37,768 nucleotides of DNA from Candidatus Woesearchaeota archaeon (GTDB taxonomy: Archaea > Nanobdellota > Nanobdellia > Woesearchaeales > DSVV01). A program made the translations under genes and the position numbers. Under the pieces are notes generated by a model. It worked only from the letters and a program-made list of their open reading frames with translations, did no database searches and was not told where the DNA came from. The stretch is from the NCBI GenBank assembly GCA_018303325.1, contig JAGVYH010000048.1:1-37768 (forward strand). The letters are read 5' to 3'. Shown here one piece after another: positions 3,371 through 35,306 of the stretch. How positions within the stretch are numbered: position 1 is the stretch's first letter; every line of letters begins with the position of its first letter.

Positions 3371-3529
3371 ATGTTAAATTTTAGAGCAATTCATAACAAA
3401 ATTCAGAAACTTTTATATATAGTAAGTGACCTAAATCTCATCAATATCGCGTCACTTACTATATTTGTCGGGCATAACTATTTTGATAAGTATTTATGTC
3501 CGACATTATACCCATTAAAACGAGAATAA
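3371..3529 (+). pseudogene. Remnant of a small ORF cut by hairpins
   Basis: An ATG one base after the hepT stop opens MLNFRAIHNKIQKLL, after which the frame runs into the next double hairpin (3417-3505) and ends at 3529. The first 15 residues look like a genuine amphipathic start and the rest is palindrome-derived. It may be the 5' end of a lost third gene of the toxin-antitoxin operon. The family cannot be recognised. Confidence 0.35.
3417..3505. repeat. Double-hairpin element after hepT
   Basis: Hairpin one (3417-3464) has 14-bp perfect arms ATATAGTAAGTGAC. Hairpin two (3466-3505) has 12-bp arms, TGTCGGGCATAA against TTATGTCCGACA, complementary except for one G-T wobble. The loops are AT-rich and unrelated to neighbouring elements. 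Confidence 0.8.
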
Positions 3530-3532
3530 GTT

Positions 3533-3626
3533 ATATACTAAAAGTGCAAAATAATCGAACATTATTTTGCACTTTTGTATATACAAAAGTGATTAATTTG
3601 TTCGAAAATTAATCACTTTTAGTATA
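3533..3626 (+). repeat. 94-bp double-hairpin element, copy A
   Basis: It contains two hairpins: AAAAGTGCAAAATAAT (16 bp, 5-nt loop) and AAAAGTGATTAATTT (15 bp, 6-nt loop). They are joined by the palindrome TTTTGTATATACAAAA and bounded by TATACTAAAAG-type ends. The whole 94 bp reappears as an exact reverse complement at 10902-10995. It ends about 55 bp before the first large surface-protein gene. Confidence 0.9.
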
Positions 3627-3680: not shown

Positions 3681-6600
3681 ATGATAAAAAAGAGAAGATT
3701 AATATTTTTATTTTTAATAGCCCTATTATTAATAATCTCGGTAATACTTAGCTCATCTGTTTTAGGGCTTCTTATTCCTCAAACAGGCAAACAAGTAGGA
3801 GATTTAAGCGAAATCGAATCTTATAAAGGCACATCACGATTGTTCTTAGAAATGTTTGTAGGTTGTTTGAGAAAGCAAGATGGAAATTATATTGGTGCAA
3901 TACCACATTACAATTCAAGTTTATTGTTAGACCAAAAAATAGATATACCTTCAGATGATGAGAAGATTTATCCAACACCGAAATTTTCTAATCCATGGGG
4001 AAATCAGGTAGATGATTTTATGGAAAAAATTATGGACAATGGTATAGAAGAAATTCCTCAACTCGAGATTTCATGGAAACAAGCTCCCAAATCTTATCTT
4101 TATGAAGGCGATTGTTACTTGTTTGCTAATTATTGGCATCAGTTCTGGAACAATAATGAAGAAATAACACAAGATGATGAAGCGTTTAGTGTGTTAAAGG
4201 AAGATGAACTTTATAGTGATAATGGTGGTACTAAAACAGAATTAGATGATGTCGCTCAAATTGACGAAGGTTTAGAAGCCCCATTTAAAGGCGCGTATTA
4301 TGTTAATAATAATGATTACAAATATTCAGTTTATTGGGAAGGTTCCCCACAAGGTAGTCAAGAGAATTGCGAAAATTATGGTGGTTTTTATAAAGATGTC
4401 GAAGACAATAAAGTCAAGAATTGTTGCGGCGACGATTACCTATGGATAATGAACGGCGTCTATAATTTTGATGGCAATCAAGATAAATCAGTAGATGAAT
4501 TATGTCTTTATGGTTATGTTTCTCCAGACACAGGCGAGCCATTAGTAGAATCTTCAGAATCGCAAATATATCATTCAACTGCAAAAGTAGGCAATCATCC
4601 ATACAGAAAAGGTGTTTATTGCACGCCTTTGGCAGCGGTTGGTGAAGTTTCTGATATACATTATTCTTACGATATCAACAATTATGATCCGCAAAGCACA
4701 ACAGAACAGAGAAGATTGTTTGTCTACAAAAAGGATTTACCAACAACTACTGCAACAGATGTTGGATTGTGGAAAACAGATACTTCTGCTAATTATTGTA
4801 CACATTATTTTTCAGATAAAGATGCTGGTTCTATAAAGAAAGGTGATAACTTCGAATGGTTAACTCCAGAACAAGCAGGCGAGATAAATTATTTTGGTGT
4901 TGGTAATGATGGTAAAACAGCTTTTGATAAAGACAACAAACCATATATTGCAGACAAAAAATTCATATTAAACCCAAAAGCACCAGACTACATCTACGAC
5001 GTCATGACTAAACAATTGTCTGGAGATGCTTACAAAGATTCAGATGACTTTACTATCTGCAACTTATTCCTAAACGGAACATGGACAGGACATCATTGTT
5101 GTGGTGGAAAATATGATTATACAGCTAAAAAACCAATCCTTGAAAACTTTAACGACGAAGGTGAAGACGGAACACATTACGTATTAACCAAGAACAGATT
5201 AAAGGCATACAGTCTAAGCGCAGAAATAGAAAGCGGAGAAGTATTGAAAGAGCCAAACAAAGCATGTTATCAAGGAGAAGCGATTGAAAGTGGGGAGATA
5301 AGGAATGTTGTTCCTAATCCACCATTTCTTGTCGGCGATAATATTCGTTCATTCATTAACAAAAAGGGAATATTATCTTTATGTAGTAATTTAAATACTG
5401 TTTATCTTGGCAATGAGGAAAAACAATTCTTTGGAGATTCACTAGGGTTTATTTATGATTTTGATTTATTTGCCGCTTCAACCAATTATCTTTTTTATGA
5501 CAACACAAAAAAAGAACTTAAAAATGTTAAACCACATTGTGGCTCTTTCTATCTCAAAGCAGGCGAGGATTTGGTTGGCTCAGGTGACTCAAATGACAGG
5601 TTCGCCTACTGCTTCACCAACAATACTTGGCTAAGTTTTGATATAGAAGATTTGCCAGATGAACAAGGTACAAACAACGAGTTAGATATATTAGGGAGAT
5701 ATCCTGCAGAAGGCGATGTATTGCATGAATCAAGCATTAATGTTGATTTTAAAACTATTAAAAATAAGGTTGTGAAATCTGACAAAGGTTGCTGTTTTGA
5801 AGGTGATTGCTGGAATGGCCAAGAATGCGTTGCTAATGGTGATACAGAGATGGATAAATATGTTGATCCAAAAAAAGTTTATCTTTGCGCTAACGGCGAA
5901 TGGACGTCTGGCGAAGCTTCATTTAACTGGTACGACGAGAAATTTGCAGGCGAAGTTGAGCCATCCCAAACAGGATTAGCATATTGTGTAGACAAATGGT
6001 CTTGCGCCTGTCCTGAAAAAGATGTTTATGATTTAGGCGATGAAGACCAGCATGAGATAGATGTTTGCGAAACTTATACACAACCAAATTCCCTGTGCAC
6101 AAGAGAGCCTGCGATGTTTATCGACGACAGATTCTGCGAGCCAGAATTTACGAAAAAAGATGACAATGGTTATGATTTTAAAGATGCCTCAACAATAACA
6201 TCATCACAATGGACTTCTCGAACAAAATATCTCGCAACTGCATTGTTAACCCTTGCTCAGCAAAAGAAGTCAAATGAGTTTACTTTACATTGCGACACCC
6301 CAAAAAATGTTCTTAACTTTTATGATTTAAGTTTTACAAAGGATTTGTTTGTTACAGAACTGGATTATAATAATTTCTGTGCCTTAAAACTTAAAACAAA
6401 TGCTGGTGATGAAGAAATTTATTTAGGCACAACATTAAACCCAAAACTAAACTATGATGAAATACCTGAAGAATTATACCAAACAAAAGAAATATCTGAA
6501 TTTGAGCAGTGCACAGACGACACTAGTTGTATCGAAGGATATGGCTGCTACAAAAAGCCTGCTGCCAATGTTGGACAATGTGTCAAACAATGTTATGATA

Positions 6601-7421
6601 ATAGTGATTGCGAAGAAAACGAAGGATGTTATTCTGAAGATGGGGAAGAAGTGAGTGAAAATGAGGTTAATCAAGGATTATGCGCAAAAAAAGCGCCAAA
6701 ATCATTCGATATGTTTAATATTGAAAATTTAGGTGAATTGTTTTATGGAACATCTGACACAACAGGCATATTAGATAATGAATTCTTGTTTAAATTAACT
6801 AGCAAGACATTTGCTGAAGAGGAATGCAAAACTATTCTTGAAGGAACTAACCCCCAAAACGGAAATGGTGATAATTTCTTGCTCTTTAAAACTTGTGATA
6901 ATAATAATGTTGCTTTTAATAATTTTACAAAAGCAATGATATTTAGTAACAACCCACAAGAAAAAGAATTTTTAACATTGACATATGACGAGACCACAAA
7001 TAATGAGTTAATTAGTAATGTTAATGATATAAAAAAGTATTATCAGAGTAACAAAGACAAAATCGCAGAGAAGAAAGAAATGGATATTATTAATACTCTT
7101 TCTGATTTTGACAAAGTATACTATGCTAAAAAAGATACTAAAGTAATCTTCGGCGTCTTAGAACGAAAATCAGACCCAGATGCTTCTGGAGATCCTTCTT
7201 CAAAGCTAAGATATTTTGGTGTTATTATGTACAAAAATATATTTACAGACAACAAAGTATGTACAGAACTTGAAAACTCCTCGCCTTTGCTTTATTGTAG
7301 TCATGACGATACTACAAAAGTTACAGTAATTATCATCCCATCAACACCAAACTACGACGGCACAGAAGATGCAATCATGAATTATTGGTCAGATTTGACT
7401 GCGAAGATTAGAATGAAATAA
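3681..7421 (+). CDS. Very large secreted Cys-rich protein, unknown function
   Basis: The 1246-aa product starts MIKKRRLIFLFLIALLLIIS, a signal peptide or anchor, and the rest appears extracellular. No catalytic family is recognised. Cysteines come in clusters: NCCGDDY near 250, CCGGKYDY near 475, CCFEGDCWNGQECV near 705, and a late block (about residues 950-1000) with SCIEGYGCYKK and DCEENEGCYSEDG, resembling small disulfide-bonded knots. Acidic, Asn-rich composition fits a cell-surface or adhesin-like role (inference). The ATG follows a weak GAGG about 10 nt upstream. A double-hairpin element lies just before it and a hairpin repeat after it. Signal, cysteines and topology are visible; the function is not. 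Confidence 0.75.
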   Translation: MIKKRRLIFLFLIALLLIISVILSSSVLGLLIPQTGKQVGDLSEIESYKGTSRLFLEMFVGCLRKQDGNYIGAIPHYNSSLLLDQKIDIPSDDEKIYPTPKFSNPWGNQVDDFMEKIMDNGIEEIPQLEISWKQAPKSYLYEGDCYLFANYWHQFWNNNEEITQDDEAFSVLKEDELYSDNGGTKTELDDVAQIDEGLEAPFKGAYYVNNNDYKYSVYWEGSPQGSQENCENYGGFYKDVEDNKVKNCCGDDYLWIMNGVYNFDGNQDKSVDELCLYGYVSPDTGEPLVESSESQIYHSTAKVGNHPYRKGVYCTPLAAVGEVSDIHYSYDINNYDPQSTTEQRRLFVYKKDLPTTTATDVGLWKTDTSANYCTHYFSDKDAGSIKKGDNFEWLTPEQAGEINYFGVGNDGKTAFDKDNKPYIADKKFILNPKAPDYIYDVMTKQLSGDAYKDSDDFTICNLFLNGTWTGHHCCGGKYDYTAKKPILENFNDEGEDGTHYVLTKNRLKAYSLSAEIESGEVLKEPNKACYQGEAIESGEIRNVVPNPPFLVGDNIRSFINKKGILSLCSNLNTVYLGNEEKQFFGDSLGFIYDFDLFAASTNYLFYDNTKKELKNVKPHCGSFYLKAGEDLVGSGDSNDRFAYCFTNNTWLSFDIEDLPDEQGTNNELDILGRYPAEGDVLHESSINVDFKTIKNKVVKSDKGCCFEGDCWNGQECVANGDTEMDKYVDPKKVYLCANGEWTSGEASFNWYDEKFAGEVEPSQTGLAYCVDKWSCACPEKDVYDLGDEDQHEIDVCETYTQPNSLCTREPAMFIDDRFCEPEFTKKDDNGYDFKDASTITSSQWTSRTKYLATALLTLAQQKKSNEFTLHCDTPKNVLNFYDLSFTKDLFVTELDYNNFCALKLKTNAGDEEIYLGTTLNPKLNYDEIPEELYQTKEISEFEQCTDDTSCIEGYGCYKKPAANVGQCVKQCYDNSDCEENEGCYSEDGEEVSENEVNQGLCAKKAPKSFDMFNIENLGELFYGTSDTTGILDNEFLFKLTSKTFAEEECKTILEGTNPQNGNGDNFLLFKTCDNNNVAFNNFTKAMIFSNNPQEKEFLTLTYDETTNNELISNVNDIKKYYQSNKDKIAEKKEMDIINTLSDFDKVYYAKKDTKVIFGVLERKSDPDASGDPSSKLRYFGVIMYKNIFTDNKVCTELENSSPLLYCSHDDTTKVTVIIIPSTPNYDGTEDAIMNYWSDLTAKIRMK

Positions 7422-7463
7422 TATACACAATAATATTAATAGAATAAATTAGGTATTTTTTTA

Positions 7464-7565
7464 GTTCCTGGGCGAAGCCACCCGTCTCATGAATTTTTGA
7501 GTTTTTTATGTTGTATAAAAAAATAAAAAAATTAATCATAGTGAACTGTGGCTTCGCCTTGGAAT
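7464..7565 (+). repeat. CCGTCTCATGAA-type long hairpin, copy 1
   Basis: The left arm TTCCTGGGCGAAGCCAC pairs with the right arm GTGGCTTCGCCTTGGAA across a loop of about 70 nt. The loop starts with the family core CCGTCTCATGAA and ends ATCATAGTGAAC. Each arm can also fold on itself (GGC-GAA-GCC). The next double-hairpin element begins directly at its right edge. Confidence 0.8.
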
Positions 7566-7654
7566 TATAGCAAAGGCACTAAATTTTCGTAATTAACGAT
7601 GCCTTTGCTATATACGTGGACTTTAACAAAAAAGATACGAATATTAAAGTCCAC
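7566..7654 (+). repeat. Double-hairpin element between the surface genes
   Basis: Hairpin one (7566-7612) has 13-bp arms TATAGCAAAGGCA; hairpin two (7616-7654) has 11-bp arms GTGGACTTTAA. Its reverse complement matches the element at 11313-11400 in the GTGGACTTTAA hairpin and the linker, whereas the other hairpin has entirely different arms. ORF-track residues upstream of 7709 are translated from this repeat and should not be annotated as protein. Confidence 0.85.
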
Positions 7655-7657
7655 CAC

Positions 7658-7665
7658 TATAAAAG
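7658..7665 (+). promoter_or_regulatory. TATA box at the edge of a repeat, for the 7709 gene
   Basis: TATAAAAG directly adjoins the right hairpin. Transcription would start near 7685, about 25 nt before the preferred ATG at 7709, so insertion of the element may have supplied or moved the promoter. Confidence 0.45.
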
Positions 7666-7708
7666 AACTAAACAAATACAATTAAACCATAATAATCCAA
7701 AATGCACC

Positions 7709-10000
7709 ATGAAACCAAATTTATCAAAGAAATCTCAACTAGCAATCTTTATGATTCTTGGAATAGTATCAGTTATACTTATCGGTTTGGCATTATTCGG
7801 CATTTCTAGCTCCACAGAAAAAGGTTTTGCAACAAAACAATCACAGTTAGGAGAGCTGTTTATCGGCAAAGGTAAATACACTACTTACATTAAAAGCTGT
7901 CTTGACCAGGCAACAAAACAAGGTTTAATATTAGCAGGCAAACAAGGCGGCGCAATTTATGACAACCAGACAATTGGAGGTAAACTAAGCCAGACCTCGA
8001 AATATTATGAAGTAGAGGATATAAGAATACATTATTCTTTACTTTCTCCGACAACAATTAAACTTCCTGAATATCCTTATCCTACAATAGAAAACATAAA
8101 TATGCCTTTCTTATCCTCAGACTCTTCTGTTTACGGTATCTCCTCGCCATTTATCAGTGCCATTAATAATCCTTTCATTCCTTTATGCGACAGGTTTGGC
8201 CCAAATAATGATCCAAAATCTAACATTCCTTACTGCGGCAATTTTCCGAACATTTTCGACACTGTAAATATTAATGACCACAATTCTGTCCAGGAATACC
8301 TCCAAAAATACATCACGCAAAAAACAAACGATTGCATTAAACTTGAAACACTGCCAGAGCTTCAAGGATATAATATTATTAAACAAAATTTTAATGTAGA
8401 TATTGTCTTGACAGAATCTTCTGTTGTTGCTAATCTTAACATGACTTTGGCATTATCAACACCGCAGTCAACATTAAAAGAAACCCTGCCTGTAATAGAT
8501 ATCAGCGGCATTTCAGTCGAGAAACACATCAGAATAAAACAGATTTTCGAATTGCTTGCAAGGTTGAGACAGGAAGATTCAAAGAACATATTTTTTGAAG
8601 TAACAAATGCACAGACATTAACTCATTGCGGTCCAAACGAAAATTTGCCTTGCTTAAAGCCAGGAATGATTGTCTCAACCCAAAAATTGTTTAACAATGA
8701 TTATGTCGTCAAGATTACAGACACAGAATCATTGATTGATGGAAAAAATTATGTTTACCAGACAGTTTTTCAGAACAGAAACCCAGCATTAGATTATTTA
8801 ACAGACAATAACCTGAATACACAAAACACAGAATTTTCTAATTACAATGCTGTTCTCGTCGAGGGAATGACTTTAATAATAGATCCTTATGGATATGATC
8901 CTGACGAGGATAATCATGAGAATGGTTTTATGAAAGAGTATTATTTCTACGAAGCAGTTAATAGTAATGGAAACCCAGATAGTAATGGCTATACTAAATT
9001 TGAGGCTGACAAGGATAATGACGGTGTGATTGATTGTATCCTTATAACAAACGGCGGTTTAGATGGAATTCAGAATTCGTTGAAAAACTGCCTTGTTCCA
9101 GACAAATTGCCGCCTGCATTTAAAGACAGGAAAGTAACATATACATTAACTCAGTATGACGCAGGCGAACACATTATCAGAGTAAAAGTGTGCGATAATA
9201 CAAACAGTCCAAAATGTGATTGGCAAGATGTAAAAATATTTGTTATTCCTTTGATAGCTTTTGACACAGACGAGAATGATAATCCTTATCCTTTTAACCC
9301 GTCAACAGATTATCAAGTTAAAGGGCAGTTTATTTATACTATTAATCCAAATGGAATTGTTACTTTGGGTGTAAAACAAACAATTCCTTCAGAATCTCCA
9401 TTAACATCTGACACAGAATCACAACAAGAAAATGATGCTCAACCATCTCAATCTTCAACACCAGCATCTTCATCACCTTCTTCAGCAGATCAATCATCAT
9501 CTCAACCTTCAACACCTTCATCTTCTCAACAAACCACACCAGTAATCACGCCAACCATACCTTATGATAATACCGACGTGGATATTCTTATATCTAGAGC
9601 ATTAAGCGGTACAAAACTGCCTTATGAAATGTATTACTTTGAAAACAAATATCTTATAGTGAAAACTACTGTTAATAATCAAGGTCCAGAAATTGTGCCA
9701 GAAACAGACGCATTTAGGCAATTTGCTGAAAAAGGCGACAATGGAAAACCTAACTTATACATTCAAAAAAAGATTTACGGCACTAACCAGCAAAGCGCAC
9801 TTAACCAAAAGCTAGTTCCAGGAAAAAACCTGTTTTTTATTTACATACCTGAACCATGCACACAAGGAGCATTCTTTCAAGGATACTGCCATTATGGTAA
9901 CAAATGTTATTATAATATGAATATAGTTAATCATAATTTTCAAACAGCATGGGACAATTGTCCTTCTGCAAACCTCTGCGCGGAAACTGGATGTGTATAA
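7709..10000 (+). CDS. Large secreted protein with pilin-like N-terminus and PKD-like domain
   Basis: I place the start at ATG 7709 (763 aa) because the longer ORF begins inside a hairpin repeat. The N-terminus MKPNLSKKSQLAIFMILGIV is a short basic stretch, then KKSQ and one long hydrophobic helix, resembling archaeal class III (prepilin-type) signals, followed by a large outside domain. The middle (about residues 390-520) has an acidic DPYGYDPDEDN element and AGEHIIRVKVCD, typical of PKD/Ig-like beta domains. A Ser/Pro/Gln/Thr-rich linker spans about 560-610. The C-terminus is Cys-rich (CTQGAFFQGYCHYGNKC). Attachment or surface structure is plausible but not shown. Confidence 0.75.
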   Translation: MKPNLSKKSQLAIFMILGIVSVILIGLALFGISSSTEKGFATKQSQLGELFIGKGKYTTYIKSCLDQATKQGLILAGKQGGAIYDNQTIGGKLSQTSKYYEVEDIRIHYSLLSPTTIKLPEYPYPTIENINMPFLSSDSSVYGISSPFISAINNPFIPLCDRFGPNNDPKSNIPYCGNFPNIFDTVNINDHNSVQEYLQKYITQKTNDCIKLETLPELQGYNIIKQNFNVDIVLTESSVVANLNMTLALSTPQSTLKETLPVIDISGISVEKHIRIKQIFELLARLRQEDSKNIFFEVTNAQTLTHCGPNENLPCLKPGMIVSTQKLFNNDYVVKITDTESLIDGKNYVYQTVFQNRNPALDYLTDNNLNTQNTEFSNYNAVLVEGMTLIIDPYGYDPDEDNHENGFMKEYYFYEAVNSNGNPDSNGYTKFEADKDNDGVIDCILITNGGLDGIQNSLKNCLVPDKLPPAFKDRKVTYTLTQYDAGEHIIRVKVCDNTNSPKCDWQDVKIFVIPLIAFDTDENDNPYPFNPSTDYQVKGQFIYTINPNGIVTLGVKQTIPSESPLTSDTESQQENDAQPSQSSTPASSSPSSADQSSSQPSTPSSSQQTTPVITPTIPYDNTDVDILISRALSGTKLPYEMYYFENKYLIVKTTVNNQGPEIVPETDAFRQFAEKGDNGKPNLYIQKKIYGTNQQSALNQKLVPGKNLFFIYIPEPCTQGAFFQGYCHYGNKCYYNMNIVNHNFQTAWDNCPSANLCAETGCV

Positions 10001-10035
10001 CGCTTTAATATTAAGGTATTATTATCCCAATAACA

Positions 10036-10869
10036 TTATTTATGTTCAAGCTGTTTCTTTTTCTTCCCTTCAGTCAAATGCAAATAATTTTCTTTTGATA
10101 CAATAGATTTACCTGTTTTTTGTTCAAGTTCTTTTCGTGTGTTTTTAGCAATGTCACCGCCTTCTTTAGCAGTATGTTTTAATTGTGGAAATCCCTTTGC
10201 ATCCTTAGCAATAGTAATATCTGTTGTTGCTTTTTCTCCAACCATAGTCAAGATTAGTTCCCAATCAGTCATATGATCCCTTAAATTTTGATTCGATTTC
10301 TTTAATTTTTTGAATTCTTTGTATTCTCTTATTGTTTTACCAAATGTTGCCTTTGAAATTTCATTAGTCAGAATTCCAAAATCTTTCTCTTCCTGAACAC
10401 CTCTGGATTTCCATTCATCAGTCAGGTCTTGTCTGATAGCAATGCCTCTTAATCTTTTATCAATCCACTCTTTTGGATATCCTTTCAATTCATAATATTC
10501 CTTTACTCTGTCTTGAGCAAGTTCTGGGTTTTCTATTTCCTGAATTCGTTCATAACCCACTTTTGCAAGCCAAAGCTTGAAAGGTTCTGCTTTTGGTGAT
10601 GGAATTGATTGAATTATTCTGAACATAGATTTTGTGTTGGCGCAGTCTGTTAAGTAATATTTACCATCAGCAGATATTAATTTCAGTTGTAAACAAAATG
10701 TTAACAACTGAGATTCTCTTCCTTTTAAAACACCCCAATACTGCCTAGGAGCAAGGCTATCAGTTAATGCTTCAACTACATCAACAACAGAGTAATACCA
10801 TTCATCATTATGCCAAATCCTTCTTATCTTTTTATCTTGAAATACAACCAATGCTTTGTCTTTATCCAT
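10036..10869 (-). CDS. Bro-N domain (DinD-like) protein
   Basis: The 277-aa protein opens with KIRRIWHNDEWYYSVVDVVEALTDS..PRQYWGVLK, a standard Bro-N DNA-binding domain (about residues 12-105) found in phage antirepressors and in DinD. The rest (ERIQEIENPELAQDRVKEYY and the basic tail GKKKKQLEHK) follows the DinD-like architecture and length (E. coli DinD is about 274 aa). Bro-N proteins often come with phages or mobile elements. It is encoded opposite to its neighbours, and its TATA-rich upstream region overlaps the end of the second 94-bp double-hairpin copy. The biochemical role in archaea is unknown to me; a link with the repeats is only positional. Confidence 0.75.
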   Translation of the reverse strand: MDKDKALVVFQDKKIRRIWHNDEWYYSVVDVVEALTDSLAPRQYWGVLKGRESQLLTFCLQLKLISADGKYYLTDCANTKSMFRIIQSIPSPKAEPFKLWLAKVGYERIQEIENPELAQDRVKEYYELKGYPKEWIDKRLRGIAIRQDLTDEWKSRGVQEEKDFGILTNEISKATFGKTIREYKEFKKLKKSNQNLRDHMTDWELILTMVGEKATTDITIAKDAKGFPQLKHTAKEGGDIAKNTRKELEQKTGKSIVSKENYLHLTEGKKKKQLEHK

Positions 10870-10901
10870 TTTGTATGCCTGTTTTATAGTCTTGCTCTTT
10901 A

Positions 10902-10995
10902 TATACTAAAAGTGATTAATTTTCGAACAAATTAATCACTTTTGTATATACAAAAGTGCAAAATAATGTTCGATTATTTTGCACTTTTAGTATAT
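10902..10995 (-). repeat. 94-bp double-hairpin element, copy B (exact inverted copy)
   Basis: All 94 bases equal the reverse complement of 3533-3626, and identity stops abruptly on both sides. With copy A it brackets 7.3 kb that includes two surface-protein genes and the Bro-N gene. Confidence 0.92.
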
Positions 10996-11194
10996 GATGT
11001 CACACAATTTTATCAATGCTTACTGCATTTAATCAAATCTGCGACTGCAAATGGATGGGGTTTTTTGTACTTATAAATGTTTTTGTGCACGGTGCTGTCA
11101 ACTTAAGTGTGCTAAATTTAGTTTAGTTGGTGTTTAGTTCTTTATTTGGTTTTAGTTAATATTCTGTTTTTTAATCCTGTTTCTCGCTCTCAGT
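10996..11194. other. Non-coding stretch between repeats
   Basis: About 200 bp of T-rich sequence. I find no ORF, tRNA or strong hairpin here. Confidence 0.4.
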
Positions 11195-11421
11195 CCGTTT
11201 GTGGGACGCAGTCCCCCGTCTCATGAAAAGTTTTTTACGTTTTTTTAATAGTTATATAAATAGTTCAGTTTAAAATAATAAAACCTAAACTAAATTTCAT
11301 CATGAGATAGCGGTGGACTTTAATATATATATCTGTTTAGTTAAAGTCCACAAATATAGTTACGGAAATATATATATAATTATTAATGTCCGTAACTATA
11401 CGTGTGGCTGCGCCCAGGAAC
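11195..11421 (+). repeat. CCGTCTCATGAA-type hairpin, copy 2, interrupted
   Basis: The left arm (GTTTGTGGGACGCAGTCCC then CCGTCTCATGAAA) and the distant right arm (CGTGTGGCTGCGCCCAGG) match the family. The right half is broken after CATGAGATA by a double-hairpin element (11313-11400), so the unit spans about 227 bp instead of about 110-160. Confidence 0.7.
11313..11400 (+). repeat. Double-hairpin element nested in the longer hairpin repeat
   Basis: Hairpin one (11313-11351) has arms GTGGACTTTAA; hairpin two (11355-11400) has 12-bp arms TATAGTTACGGA. It is homologous to the reverse complement of 7566-7654, but hairpin two has a different yet perfectly complementary arm pair. Confidence 0.85.
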
Positions 11422-11488
11422 TAAATAAAAACCAGATAAAAACAACATATTTAAATAGTATTAATTAATAGATTAATAGTTATATACT

Positions 11489-13090
11489 ATGAAACATAAA
11501 AAAGAGCTGATGTTGCTGATAGTTTTAACTATTTTTCTCTCTTCAGAAGCTGACTGCAAAGCGCATAGTGGCGAAATATCTTATGAAGGTGAATGTACAA
11601 CTGGCTGTTGCTGTATATGGAAACCTGTTGACAAAAAGTATGAACAGCAAACAGGAACTACTAAAGGATATTGTAATAGTCTTCCTAGCTCTGTATTTAA
11701 TCCTTCTGTTTCAAGCCCTGCGTTATGTACAAATTATTGCAATTCATTAACCGCTCTTTCAGGCGACGAAGGAAAACTGCCAGCTTGTATGAATGGTATT
11801 GATGACGATAATAATGGTTTGATAGATTATCCTGATGAAGTAGGTTGTTCTGCTCCCGAAGATGATTCTGAAGAGGCAACTGCTTCAGAAAAAGAATGCA
11901 GTGACCAGATAGATAATGATGGAGATGGAAAGATAGATTACTATGGATTTTACGAATCTTCTTATCAAGCACAGGATAATACAAAATATGCAGACTATAA
12001 AACTTTTTTAACTAATGGTAAAACACCAGATCCATGCTGCACTAAATCTTTTGGCATGTCAGAATCATGCAGTTTTGACGAGTGCAGTGTCGGAGAAAAC
12101 ACAAAAGACCAAGGCACTTACAAAGGTCTTTGCCAGTGCGGAAAAGATGTTTGTGGTTTTCCAGAATTCATTAATCCTCTTTTTGAACAAAAAACGTATG
12201 CAACAGGCAAATATTGTTGCGCTGGCAAATGCAGTAAAGTGCCATGTGGGCCATGTACAGAAGGAGAAACAATTTACGTGATAGATAATAGCGGCAAAAC
12301 TACTTACAATTGCACAAATGGTGTGTTTGTAAAAGGATTAACTGAACCAATTGGCGCTCCTGAACAATGTTTCGGCGCTGAGAATGACGATGATAATAAT
12401 GGTGCTACCAATTGTGAGGATACTAAATGTTATACTTTAAAATGTTCAATGGATAAGGGTGCAACTAAAGATGGAGCAACAGGCAAAGTAATTATTCCAT
12501 ATGGTTGTGGTAAAACATCTAGTCTAACCGTTTCTTATTTCGACGAGTCAGACGATTATTGGAAATGCTGTTTCCCTATTAATGGACAGAGCAGAGTTAA
12601 TGACTGCAAATATAACGACGGTGTTCCAGATACTTGCGGAGCCTGCGAATGTTTAAATCTTCATAAACCAGCACAAAACCTTAAAGTGCAGCATGTTTAT
12701 GGCCAAGCAAAATTAAACCTAAGCTTTTATTTTGAATGTCAAGAGCCAGAAGTTAAGTTAAAAGTGTTAAGATGTGACGGAACAGCTGGAAGCTGTGATG
12801 TGAATAACGATGGTACAATTACTTTAGAAACAAGCACAAAATTTGTTGATGTTTCTGATAATATGGATTGTTTATTAGAACAATTAGATAATAATGAAAA
12901 TCCAACGAAAACCGATTGTTTCGGCGATAATGGTATCTTACAGCCAGGCGCTAAACCTGAAAAGATTTATGCAATATTCGACACAAAAATCATGTCAGAA
13001 AAAGATTATACTTATTGCCTTTACCATGAAATCTGGTTCAAAGATGTGTTTAAGTCATTCTGGTCATTTTTGTATAAGAAACAATCCTGA
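11489..13090 (+). CDS. N-terminal part of a giant surface protein (frameshifted)
   Basis: This frame starts MKHKKELMLLIVLTIFLSSE, a signal peptide, then a Cys-rich head (CTTGCCCIW). Two Ca-binding-like repeats follow, NGIDDDNNGLIDYPDEVGC and DQIDNDGDGKIDYYG. More Cys pairs (KCSKVPCGPCTEGE, CGACECL) come before the frame ends at 13090. Coherent protein continues in the +1 frame from about 13068, so this is probably the first 530 residues of a protein of about 2240 aa. ATTTAAATA about 35 nt upstream suggests a promoter with a short or absent leader. Surface exposure is likely; the function is unknown. Confidence 0.7.
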   Translation: MKHKKELMLLIVLTIFLSSEADCKAHSGEISYEGECTTGCCCIWKPVDKKYEQQTGTTKGYCNSLPSSVFNPSVSSPALCTNYCNSLTALSGDEGKLPACMNGIDDDNNGLIDYPDEVGCSAPEDDSEEATASEKECSDQIDNDGDGKIDYYGFYESSYQAQDNTKYADYKTFLTNGKTPDPCCTKSFGMSESCSFDECSVGENTKDQGTYKGLCQCGKDVCGFPEFINPLFEQKTYATGKYCCAGKCSKVPCGPCTEGETIYVIDNSGKTTYNCTNGVFVKGLTEPIGAPEQCFGAENDDDNNGATNCEDTKCYTLKCSMDKGATKDGATGKVIIPYGCGKTSSLTVSYFDESDDYWKCCFPINGQSRVNDCKYNDGVPDTCGACECLNLHKPAQNLKVQHVYGQAKLNLSFYFECQEPEVKLKVLRCDGTAGSCDVNNDGTITLETSTKFVDVSDNMDCLLEQLDNNENPTKTDCFGDNGILQPGAKPEKIYAIFDTKIMSEKDYTYCLYHEIWFKDVFKSFWSFLYKKQS

Positions 13091-22774: not shown

Positions 22775-25066
22775 CTAATTATGCATAAAATAATCCCTCA
22801 ACAATTTTAACCCAGTATCCCTTCTAACAAATTCTGTGCAGTGATATATATAAAATTCTCTGTACTCTCTTTTAATTATATCAATTGATTCCATTGCGCT
22901 ACCAAGAATCTGTGCTCTCAATGGTTGTATTCTAGGTCTAGACGGAGAGCTCCAGGCAAAGCATAATGCAATGGCTCTTTCGTAGACAGAATTAAGATAT
23001 TTCAGGGTAAATAATTCCTGTTCTTGTTCATCTGCTTTTTCAGATTTTATGCTTCTATCTGGCACATTTAGTGCTTCTGTATCTTGTATTCTAAGCGTTC
23101 TAAAATATGAATATTCCCTAAAATAATGTTTTGCTGCATTTATCCTGAATTCCCAGCTCATTTTTCCTGAATAATTTAACAAATTAACCAATTCCTGCGC
23201 CTGTTCAATCGTGCCTTTCTCATCCCAGTCAATTGCAATAATCCTTTCTCCTCTTAATTTCGGAATTAAGCCAGTTTCTATTATCCAATTTTCAGGATGC
23301 GCATCTTTGTTGAATACATATTCTGAATTAATCCTTGCATCAACTATATACCCTGCCAGAAGCTTATCTATAATCTTTGCATCAATATCATACTCTTGTT
23401 TTAATCTTCCAACTCTGTCGTCAAAATATTCTCTGCTTTTTCTTGTTGCTTTTCCTTCAACAGGCATTTTAGCATGAATAAATGCAAGCATAGTAAGAAT
23501 TTCTATAGTAACCTTTTCCGCTTCTGGCTCAGAACAACTATTTATTTTCTCAAGCAGCGTTAAACCAATGCTTCTTCTCATAACCTGCACAAGTTTATTG
23601 TCATACTCAATATAGGTTATATTTTCACTGAATCCTAATCTTTTTAATATCTGTAGTCTTCTGTTCTCGTCGTCACATAACCTATTTTGGTCTTTTTCAT
23701 ACTCATGCATTAATTCTTTTAACATCTTTGCATGTATTTCTTGTGCTTGACTTAGATTAGTGCTGGCTTTCTCTGTTTCATCACGAGAATCTTGTTTGTA
23801 AATATAAGTTGCATTTAGGAATTTGCTTGCTTCGCCGCTTATCTGCCTTACTTGTTTGGTTGTTTCTCCGCAGCTTTCAAGCGCATACTTTTCGTCAGTT
23901 TCAATCTTTTGGTAAATCGCTTTATGAATATTAATTGCTTTTCTTTTCTCGTCGTCATTTCCATTCTCAAGTTCTTCAGCATACAATACTTTCAGCTCAA
24001 GGCTATCTGAAAATACATTTAATGCTTCTTCAAATGTCTTGAGGCATTTAAGATGTTCTCCACGTACTTTATAACTGTATGCTCTGTTGCAGTACAATAC
24101 TAAAATATCTTTACTTAACTTTCCTTCTTTTCTTGCTTCTTTCAGCCTTTTTTTTAGTTGCAATGTTTCTAAAAATCCAGTTAGGTACATATTCAATCTT
24201 TCTATAAATAAATTAGATCTCATAAATCTAACCTTTTTTTTATAAGGCAATTTTTCATTGGCTTTTCTTAGTTCAAACAAAGCATTATTATCATCACTCA
24301 TCATTGAATAAGCGTATGCCTTTGAAAGGTTTGCAGCATAATCTTCAAGAGAAAGATGTTCTATTTCTTCACTAATCTCTAAATATTTTTTATGATTTCT
24401 TCTGAACAAATTATACACTAATCTTAAACCCAGCCATGTAACTTTTCTCTGCTCAGGATTAGATAATGGTTTTAACGAGTCAAATATTGCTTGTGTTACC
24501 CCAAAAAAAGGAGCAGAAGATATGGCTAAATAAGCAAAACTTCTGGAAACATATCCATTAATGAAATTAATAAACCCCATTCTTTCATACTCAAGCTTAG
24601 GCATTAACCAACTAGGCTCAAGAATGACATATTCGCCATATCTTGGTTCAATTCTGTGTTCATTAAATAAACCAGTTAACAAATATAAATCAAATCTGAT
24701 CATTTCATTATGCACTAGAAACCATAATGCCAATCCGGCAGAAATAGGATAGTTTAATATTTTCCAGACTCCTTTCGGTTCAACTTTTACTCTTTCCTCT
24801 GTCCTGTGCTTGTGTGCATAAAGGCTTGCATATAAAAAAATAGAACCAATTCCAGCATCTGTTATAGTTGGATTAATTGTCTCAGTCACACCACCAAAAC
24901 TATTTAAATTATGCATTAGCAGTGTTTCCAGTCCAAAATAAACCGGCGCAACTATTTCAGGATAATATCTTTTAACAAATTCTTTTGCTTTCTTGAGTTT
25001 AGAGTCTTTTAACTGCTCATTTAGATGCTTATTTATTAGTTTATCAAGATTCATAGAGTTTCTCAT
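22775..25066 (-). CDS. Large TPR/helical protein with an APH-like kinase domain
   Basis: 763 aa with three visible parts. The N-terminus (1-200) has hydrophobic segments (IGSIFLYASLYA, ISAGLALWFLVH) and may be membrane-associated. The middle (about 230-420) is helical and TPR-like (YAANLSKAYAYSMMSDDNNAL, LYCNRAYSYKVRGEHLKCL). The C-terminal part carries NKDAHPENWII followed by RIIAIDWDEKG, matching the HxDxxxxN catalytic loop and the downstream metal-binding D of aminoglycoside phosphotransferase-like kinases, with Asn replacing His. I cannot say whether it is active. It is divergent from the small pilin-like gene at 25232. Function unknown; signalling or regulation is possible. Confidence 0.62.
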   Translation of the reverse strand: MRNSMNLDKLINKHLNEQLKDSKLKKAKEFVKRYYPEIVAPVYFGLETLLMHNLNSFGGVTETINPTITDAGIGSIFLYASLYAHKHRTEERVKVEPKGVWKILNYPISAGLALWFLVHNEMIRFDLYLLTGLFNEHRIEPRYGEYVILEPSWLMPKLEYERMGFINFINGYVSRSFAYLAISSAPFFGVTQAIFDSLKPLSNPEQRKVTWLGLRLVYNLFRRNHKKYLEISEEIEHLSLEDYAANLSKAYAYSMMSDDNNALFELRKANEKLPYKKKVRFMRSNLFIERLNMYLTGFLETLQLKKRLKEARKEGKLSKDILVLYCNRAYSYKVRGEHLKCLKTFEEALNVFSDSLELKVLYAEELENGNDDEKRKAINIHKAIYQKIETDEKYALESCGETTKQVRQISGEASKFLNATYIYKQDSRDETEKASTNLSQAQEIHAKMLKELMHEYEKDQNRLCDDENRRLQILKRLGFSENITYIEYDNKLVQVMRRSIGLTLLEKINSCSEPEAEKVTIEILTMLAFIHAKMPVEGKATRKSREYFDDRVGRLKQEYDIDAKIIDKLLAGYIVDARINSEYVFNKDAHPENWIIETGLIPKLRGERIIAIDWDEKGTIEQAQELVNLLNYSGKMSWEFRINAAKHYFREYSYFRTLRIQDTEALNVPDRSIKSEKADEQEQELFTLKYLNSVYERAIALCFAWSSPSRPRIQPLRAQILGSAMESIDIIKREYREFYIYHCTEFVRRDTGLKLLRDYFMHN

Positions 25067-27746: not shown

Positions 27747-27880
27747 ATTCCTGGCATGTCCAACACGTTCACTATGATAAAACAGTTATTCGTTCTTCGC
27801 TATTTGTAATGAAAAACTAAAAACGAAGAACAAATAACTACTAATTATTCATGAGACGGTGGACTGCGTCCCAAGAACTG
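27747..27880 (-). repeat. CCGTCTCATGAA-type long hairpin, copy 4 (minus orientation)
   Basis: Read on the minus strand it starts TTCTTGGGACGCAGTCCACC then GTCTCATGAATAA and ends ATCATAGTGAACGTG, then TTGGACATGCCAGG. Its loop contains another hairpin with 15-nt arms and one mismatch (CGTTCTTCG/CGAAGAAC). It lies between the tRNA half and a convergent operon. Confidence 0.75.
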
Positions 27881-27932
27881 ACTTAAAACAAAATAAAAGT
27901 ATTCTAAGAATAAAAATCTCAGCAAAACAGAA

Positions 27933-29549: not shown

Positions 29550-29708
29550 CAGTTTGTGGGCGCAGCCACCGTCTCATGAAAAAGAATAACTGTTTATCAA
29601 TTAAACTGTTTGTCGTTAGTCGTAAACGGAAAAACATAAAAAACAGCTGACTACAAACGACCTACCCGCTTTAGTTTTATCATAATGAACATGGCTGCGC
29701 CACATTAC
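29550..29708 (+). repeat. CCGTCTCATGAA-type long hairpin, copy 5
   Basis: Left CAGTTTGTGGGCGCAGCCAC with core CCGTCTCATGAAA; right TTTTATCATAATGAACATG then GCTGCGCCAC. The loop is longer (about 110 nt) and has its own partial palindrome (GTCGTT..AACGAC). Confidence 0.75.
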
Positions 29709-35121: not shown

Positions 35122-35180
35122 GGATTTAGGCGTTGATTAAGTGTTTTTACCACCAATAATATATTATTTAGCTCACAACT

Positions 35181-35306
35181 CGTTCCAAGGACGAAGTCCA
35201 CCGTCTCATGAATAAGTTTTTACGTTTTTTTAAACATTACATAAACATTTCAAATTTAAACTAAAAAAACATCTTAGTGAACGTGTTGGACATGCCAATA
35301 ACGAAC
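35181..35306 (+). repeat. CCGTCTCATGAA-type long hairpin, copy 6
   Basis: Left CGTTCCAAGGACGAAGTCC then ACCGTCTCATGAATAAG; right TAGTGAACGTGTTGGACATG then CCAATAACG, nearly the same right end as copy 4. It separates pyrE from pyrF and could act as a partial terminator or processing site. Confidence 0.75.

What the first reader, a model, noticed from the sequence alone, without database searches (positions are those of the whole stretch)
7566..11400. Arm swapping between homologous double-hairpins
The elements at 7566-7654 and 11313-11400 (inverted) share the GTGGACTTTAA hairpin and linker, but the second hairpin has different arms (TATAGCAAAGGCA versus TATAGTTACGGA), both perfectly palindromic. 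A whole arm pair was replaced while complementarity was kept, which point mutation with compensation cannot easily explain.
Basis: seen in the sequence. Interest (0 to 1): 0.7.

Follow-up and report, generated by a model that had tools for sequence, protein, structure and literature searches.

The report
Archaeal mobile double-hairpins that swap halves
Two odd hairpin pairs in this archaeal contig belong to a large, undescribed family of tiny jumping DNA elements, found across one group of DPANN archaea, that insert into one another and exchange whole hairpins at the short TATA joint between them.

Summary
Window 7566-7661 and 11307-11400 (reverse strand) belong to a family of about 95-nt double hairpins. 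At least 111 copies were scored in this Woesearchaeota genome and 94 in its sister species. A covariance model also finds the family in 61 of 288 genomes of the order. Each element is hairpin A (TATAG-arm...arm-CTATA), a 2-5 nt linker, hairpin B, then CTAT. Copies are nested, about 97% lie outside ORFs, and some are identical. They join DNA as X-T-Y -> X-T[ATAG...CTA]T-Y, and empty sites were found. So they are mobile.

Stems covary very strongly. The A and B loops are also complementary and covary, which suggests a kissing interaction.

The "arm swap" is partly right. Whole hairpins, stem and loop together, are exchanged. Elements with 97-100% identical B carry different A, with breakpoints at the TATA linker/foot. 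The 7566 element is a chimera: its A type pairs elsewhere with another B, and its B with another A. But paired point mutation also occurs: stems form ladders of single compensated pairs, and the two arms in the finding share 8 of 12 positions.

The mobilising enzyme was not found. Closest known kinds are mitochondrial double-hairpin elements/GC clusters and bacterial REPINs. No archaeal description was found.

The parts
7566..7612 (+). Hairpin A, type I (arms TATAGCAAAGGCA / TGCCTTTGCTATA)
7613..7615 (+). Linker TAC next to the TATA foot of A; in other copies the insertion site of nested elements and the homology breakpoint of chimeras
7616..7654 (+). Hairpin B, type 1 (arms GTGGACTTTAA / TTAAAGTCCAC; loop CAAAAAAGATACGAATA contains TACGAA, complementary to TTCGTA in the A loop)
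7655..7661 (+). Right end CACTATA (the last A is probably target DNA)
11355..11400 (-). Hairpin A, type II (arms TATAGTTACGGA / TCCGTAACTATA)
11313..11351 (-). Hairpin B, type 1 (arms GTGGACTTTAA / TTAAAGTCCAC; loop TATATATAT pairs with the A loop over 9 nt)
11307..11312 (-). Right end CGCTAT, joined to CTCATGA of the host repeat
3418..3510 (+). Third member: type III A (TATAGTAAGTGAC) with type 3 B (TGTCGGGCATAA / TTATGTCCGACA), the pairing also seen in other genera
11186..11306 (-). Part of the CTCATGA-type repeat (GGACTGCGTCC hairpin, CGTCTCATGA ends) into which the 11307-11400 element is inserted at CG|T|CTCATGA
11401..11433 (-). Other part of the same host repeat (TAGTTCCTGGGCGCAGCCACACG)
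3534..3626 (+). Type II double-hairpin element (TATACTAAAAGTGC...TTTTAGTATA), a second family with complementary loops
10902..10994 (-). Inverted copy of the same type II element, 100% identical over 93 nt

Best explanation
The two features are copies of a family of about 95-nt non-autonomous mobile elements. Each is a pair of hairpins, A (left end) and B (right end), probably held together by pairing between their loops. Most likely they move as a folded single DNA strand, recognised by shape more than by sequence, and insert next to a T (usually TA), often into the linker of an existing copy. Shown: the family, its copy number, nesting in both orientations, empty sites, the junction rule, stem and loop covariation, and chimeric elements with breakpoints at the TATA linker/foot. 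Inferred: movement as single-stranded DNA, an enzyme acting in trans, and the route to chimeras (nested insertion or strand exchange at the repeated TATA linkers, after which the left end of one element and the right end of another move together).
For: Copies: at least 111 and 94 in the two species; 61 of 288 genomes of the order and 50 of 371 of the phylum, all hits within one class. Mobility: arrays such as L014 = A1[A2[A3 B2]B1]B1, L016 and L032, with L032 carrying an inner pair in reverse. Empty sites: L085 without versus L115 with an insert at GAGGAAC|T|AAAC; the L032 array versus the sister species (L055); an IS200 upstream region with the element in G100 and without it in G000. Four identical copies at different places (L096-L099). 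Intergenic: 3 of 98 inside ORFs of 100 aa or more, versus 53% of random positions. Stems: 123 double-sided changes across the order set, 0 of 500 shuffles. Loop pairing: 44 double-sided changes, shuffle mean 21, 0 of 500, at most 14 when slid; true partners beat permuted partners in 2000 of 2000 permutations by longest complementary run. DNA-level fold: mismatches in stems are as often A.C (12) as G.T (13), so wobble pairs are not favoured. Chimeras.
Against: No enzyme with matching ends was found. IS200-type Y1 transposases are associated with the element (31 of 61 versus 65 of 227 genomes, p = 0.002), but 11 strongly positive genomes have none detected. Loop complementarity could partly come from A and B having arisen as inverted copies. 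Chimeric types have weaker loop pairing on average but still exist in several copies. No three-hairpin intermediate on the route to chimeras was seen.
Confidence: 0.7

Rival explanations
1. Gradual compensated point mutation alone: hairpin A of 7566 descends from the same hairpin as that of 11313 by successive paired substitutions, without any exchange.
For: Stems form ladders of single compensated pairs, 14 of 19 links of one pair; the two arms share 8 of 12 positions.
Against: The whole A hairpins, loops included, are no more alike than shuffled sequence, while B hairpins are 87-97% alike. The A hairpin of 7566 is nearest (88-83%) to elements with a different B, and its B is nearest to elements with a different A. 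Identical B hairpins occur with unrelated A (L026/L122 versus L144).
Confidence: 0.1
2. The elements are mobilised in trans by the resident IS200/IS605-type Y1 transposase, hairpins A and B acting as surrogate left and right ends.
For: Hairpins at both ends, no target duplication, association with Y1 genes across the order (odds ratio 2.6, p = 0.002), and one Y1 gene in each of the two species.
Against: IS200 ends here carry other hairpins (CAGCTAAAGCTG, CCCAGCAC). No fixed target tetranucleotide. Multi-copy genomes such as G283, G273, G041 and G284 have no detected Y1 gene. The association may only reflect general mobile-element load.
Confidence: 0.25
3. Classical miniature inverted-repeat elements of a DDE transposase with a TA target duplication (Tc1/mariner/IS630 style).
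For: Ends read TATAG...CTATA and 80% of sites have A after the final T, so most sites look like a TA duplication.
Against: Sites without TA (CG|T|CTCATGA, TTTG|T|GGGACG) and left ends TGTAG show at most a 1-bp T duplication. No DDE_3 protein in either species. Terminal repeats are only about 5 nt.
Confidence: 0.12
4. A structured RNA (untranslated-region element or small RNA) selected for RNA folding.
For: Strong covariation, including a loop-loop pairing typical of RNA folds.
Against: Nesting, both orientations, identical dispersed copies and empty sites show mobility. G.U is not favoured over A.C. An orthologous fixed insertion (L037/L134) has broken stem pairs, more of them in one species than in the other. 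No Rfam match in the window.
Confidence: 0.1
5. Perfect palindromes are kept by copying of one arm onto the other (quasipalindrome template switching), not by selection for movement.
For: Near-absence of one-sided changes in stems of multi-copy types.
Against: The fixed orthologous copy L037/L134 has accumulated uncorrected mismatches. Arm copying does not explain covariation between the two loops or the chimeras.
Confidence: 0.2

Closest known systems
Double-hairpin elements (DHE) of fungal mitochondrial DNA (Allomyces, Schizosaccharomyces; PMC10085805 and references there)
   Same: Short DNA of two adjacent hairpins, mostly intergenic, judged mobile from its distribution.
   Different: Mitochondrial, GC-rich and few copies per genome there; here archaeal chromosome, about 30% GC, over 100 copies, with covarying loop-loop pairing. 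The original Allomyces paper could not be read here.
Yeast mitochondrial GC clusters (PMC4478555)
   Same: Palindromic, hairpin structure constrained, high turnover, merger and shuffling of hairpin units into new elements; mobilising enzyme unknown.
   Different: GC clusters are flanked by AG or ACT direct repeats; here at most one T. Different genome, size and composition.
REPINs/BIMEs with RAYT transposases in bacteria (PMC6006769, PMC3733652)
   Same: Two linked palindromes acting as a non-autonomous mobile unit, dispersed between genes.
   Different: REPs carry an unpaired GTAG foot and the two halves are inverted copies; here TATAG is inside the stem and A differs from B. Only the IS200 subclass of Y1 transposases is reported in Archaea (PMC6006769).
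IS200/IS605 ends and their miniature derivatives
   Same: Hairpins at both ends and no target duplication.
   Different: No fixed target tetranucleotide and no transposase gene between such ends was found.

Membership tests
REPIN/RAYT | Unpaired GTAG-type tetranucleotide 5' of the hairpin foot | tested here: not met
   TATAG (or TGTAG) is part of the paired stem in nearly all copies
REPIN/RAYT | Two REP copies in inverted orientation | tested here: not met
   A and B have different stems, lengths and foot sequences
REPIN/RAYT | A RAYT gene flanked by the repeats in the genome | tested here: inconclusive
   One full Y1 gene plus a relic in G000 and one Y1 gene in G001, IS200-like; in the fetched loci their flanking hairpins are of other sequence. 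Genomes are incomplete MAGs
Mitochondrial double-hairpin elements | Two adjacent hairpins forming one mobile unit | tested here: met
Mitochondrial double-hairpin elements | Located in mitochondrial DNA, GC-rich | tested here: not met
   Woesearchaeota contigs; GC 22-38%
Yeast GC clusters | Merger and shuffling of hairpin units | tested here: met
   Nested arrays and chimeras; resemblance in behaviour only
Yeast GC clusters | Flanking AG/ACT direct repeats | tested here: not met
   At most a single T is duplicated
DDE-transposase MITE | Terminal inverted repeats with fixed-length target duplication | tested here: not met
   About 5-nt ends, 0-1 bp duplication; no DDE_3; other DDE families not tested
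IS200/IS605-derived element | Subterminal hairpins at both ends, no target duplication | tested here: met
IS200/IS605-derived element | Insertion 3' of a fixed tetra- or pentanucleotide | tested here: not met
   Only A at +1 (64 of 80) and A at -3 (52 of 80) stand out
IS200/IS605-derived element | Parent element with the same ends around a Y1 transposase gene | tested here: inconclusive
   Not found among the fetched Y1 loci; whole genomes not scanned for it
IS200/IS605-derived element | Single-strand cleavage by a Y1 transposase | not testable with these tools
   needs biochemistry

The most novel reading that the evidence does not exclude
An order-wide class of archaeal single-stranded mobile DNA in which two non-identical hairpin ends are brought together by a kissing-loop interaction, recognised by fold not sequence, moved by an enzyme not yet known, and diversified by exchange of whole hairpin ends at the linker that is also its own insertion site.
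Probability: 0.35. Interest if true: 0.85.

Novelty: new variant of a known kind. Interest (0 to 1): 0.72.

Why it matters
Hairpin-based mobile elements of this build were known to me, and in the papers found, only from organelles and, as REPINs, from bacteria. Here they fill intergenic DNA of an order of DPANN archaea, with enough copies, nested arrays and sister species to read how they insert, how stems and loops coevolve, and how two ends recombine. How unassisted palindromic elements such as yeast GC clusters move and shuffle is a long-standing question, and this family makes it testable by sequence. The loop-loop pairing is a concrete, testable feature of how two ends may be synapsed.

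Tried and rejected
Chance hairpins: rejected. Known RNA family: no Rfam match in the window. Virus-borne element: exact B hairpin pattern has no match in viral contigs. Wide spread of the exact sequence: the B pattern in 84,980 species hits only the sister species, own genome left out; only the structural model reaches further. IS630-type transposase: none in the genus. Reverse transcriptase as mobiliser: weak or no association (23 of 61 versus 55 of 227, p = 0.05; strong set p = 1). IS200 transposase as owner of the ends: its own end hairpins differ; association only moderate. The true TA duplication reading was dropped because of the non-TA junctions. Target-site information beyond T, +1 A and -3 A: none seen. 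Literature searches on Woesearchaeota palindromes, archaeal REPINs, DPANN miniature elements and kissing-loop mobile elements gave no description, within an open-access library only.
Full report
CHECK. The window contig lies in a 1.97-Mb, 78-contig genome. A DNA search gave 46 matches in the own genome. R1 also matches 61 of 288 genomes of the order and 50 of 371 of the phylum, all hits being in the same order or one other family of the same class. The E-values are rough, but the hits read by eye have the same build and length.

ANATOMY. The consensus is hairpin A = T(A/G)TAG-arm, 17-26 nt loop, arm-CTA(T/C)A; a 2-5 nt linker; hairpin B = 9-12 bp stem usually ending in TAA or AAA, then C and a loop mostly 15-19 nt long; then (C)(A/G)CTAT or ATTAT. 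Stems covary: 126 of 912 cells with changes on both sides and 92.5% of cells paired, 0 of 500 shuffles reaching either. In a 31-sequence set across the order, helix A is 98.9% paired and 123 cells of the two helices change on both sides. The loops also pair. Eight positions of the A loop with eight of the B loop have 44 double-sided changes (shuffle mean 21.4, 0 of 500; slid controls at most 14). For example TAATTGAGCAA pairs with TTGCTCAATTA in L174, and TTTCCGTAA with TTACGGAAA in L160. By longest complementary run, real partners beat permuted partners in 2000 of 2000 permutations, also in the set without the home genus. Caveat: if A and B began as inverted copies, part of this complementarity is inherited. 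Stem mismatches are equally G.T (13) and A.C (12), so there is no sign of RNA wobble pairing. This is weak evidence for a DNA-level fold.

MOBILITY. Copies are nested: L014 reads A1[A2[A3 B2]B1]B1; L021 and L039 A2[A3 B2]B1; L016 A1[A4 B3]B1; L032 and L041 carry an inner pair in reverse orientation. Junctions follow X-T-Y -> X-T[ATAG...CTA]T-Y at the linker (CTATA|T|TCGTGG), in B arms (GAAC|T|AAAC), in the CTCATGA repeat (CG|T|CTCATGA, TTTG|T|GGG) and elsewhere. Empty sites: L085 versus L115 inside one genome; L055 of the sister species versus the L032 array; an IS200 upstream region with the element in G100 and without it in G000. Four copies (L096-L099) are identical over the element. Three of 98 copies lie inside ORFs of 100 aa or more, against 53% of random positions; the base after the final T is A in 64 of 80. 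One insertion is shared by both species (L037, L134) and its A stem has one broken pair in one and two in the other. Fixed copies therefore decay, and perfect stems belong to the moving lineages.

SWAPPING. A types: I (GCAAAGGCA, GCAAACGCA, GTAAACGCA...), II (GTCACGGA, GGCACGGA, GTTACGGA...), III (GTAAGTGAC, GTAAGTAAC...). B types: 1 (GTGGACTTTAAC, GCGGACTTTAAC), 2 (GGACGAACTAAAC, GGCGAATTAAAC...), 3 (TGTCGGACATAAC), 7 (GAGGAACTAAAC). Outside the genus the inspected elements pair II with 1 and III with 3, and I never with 1. Inside the genus the counts are II/1 47, III/3 24, I/2 11, I/1 7, III/1 5, II/7 2, I/7 1, other 1 (types assigned by simple motif rules). All four combinations of A{I,II} with B{1,7} exist, I/7 resting on one copy. 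The 7566 element is I/1: its A hairpin is nearest to I/2 elements (88-83%) and its B to II/1 elements (97%), while its A is only 55% identical to that of 11313, the level of shuffled sequence. L026 and L122 share an identical B hairpin with L144, whose A is different. Across ten such pairs identity ends 4-9 nt left of B, in the TATA linker or the CTATA foot; six of these pairs share L120. Within a type, stems differ mostly by single compensated pairs (14 of 19 minimum-spanning links), so compensated mutation does explain much of the arm diversity. The statement that it cannot is too strong.

MECHANISM. Preferred: fold-recognised single-stranded DNA movement with A and B as left and right ends, synapsed by their loops, in trans. 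The mobility, structure and chimeras are shown. The single strand, the enzyme and the route to chimeras are inferred. Y1 transposases are associated with the element (odds ratio 2.6, p = 0.002), but 11 strongly positive genomes have none detected, and the IS200 ends in this genus carry other hairpins. In archaea only the IS200 subclass of Y1 enzymes has been reported (PMC6006769, read). Reverse transcriptases show little association.

COMPARISON. It works like yeast mitochondrial GC clusters, which merge and shuffle hairpin units (PMC4478555), and like mitochondrial double-hairpin elements (PMC10085805). It is a member of neither by genome, composition or flanks. It fails two defining features of REPINs. 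No description in archaea was found in the held library.

VERDICT.

Noticed in passing
window 3534-3626 (+) and 10902-10994 (-): A second double-hairpin family (TATACTAAAAGTGC...TTTTAGTATA), with complementary loops TCGAACA/TGTTCGA; 80 and 77 matches in the two species, at least nine copies 100% identical over 93 nt; two inverted copies bracket 7.3 kb of the window.
   Followed up: partly
L054 about 1500-1720 (G000:C77): An IS200 tnpA relic is interrupted by a type II double-hairpin element within its C-terminal codons, direct evidence that this family also moves.
   Followed up: partly
L178 1171-1264 (G100:C7): A double-hairpin element sits in the upstream region of an IS200 element, so it could travel with the IS between lineages; the G000 copy of that region lacks it.
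   Followed up: partly
window 7463-7563, 11186-11433, 27843-27883, 29566-29584, 35171-35268: A further repeat with CGTCTCATGA ends and GGACGAAGTCC/GGCGAAGCC hairpins; a frequent host of double-hairpin insertions.
   Followed up: partly
L164, L165 (G225): A 133-nt composite element in which another small double hairpin lies inside the B loop; it occurs in at least four places, so composites appear to move as units.
   Followed up: no
L034, L043: B hairpins interrupted at the arm/loop border by yet another double hairpin (TAAATTTAACC..., CAGATTAAATG...), a third family.
   Followed up: no
L053 827-1303 and 1487-2200; G000:C5:7956-8573: C5 carries the only near-full Y1 transposase, whose reading frame ends just after the catalytic-tyrosine region, and a reverse transcriptase; a nearby ORF may belong to a diversity-generating retroelement.
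   Followed up: no
window 3681-7421, 7709-10000, 11489-13090, 22775-25066: Large predicted proteins without any Pfam match; a Bro-N protein lies at 10036-10869.
   Followed up: no
L068 1388-1491, L042 161-227, L018, L112, L137: Other small palindromic repeats (GGTGCTAGGTGC..., AAGGTAAGAAGG..., CGACTAACGACAAACGAC) turn over at the same intergenic sites between the two species.
   Followed up: no
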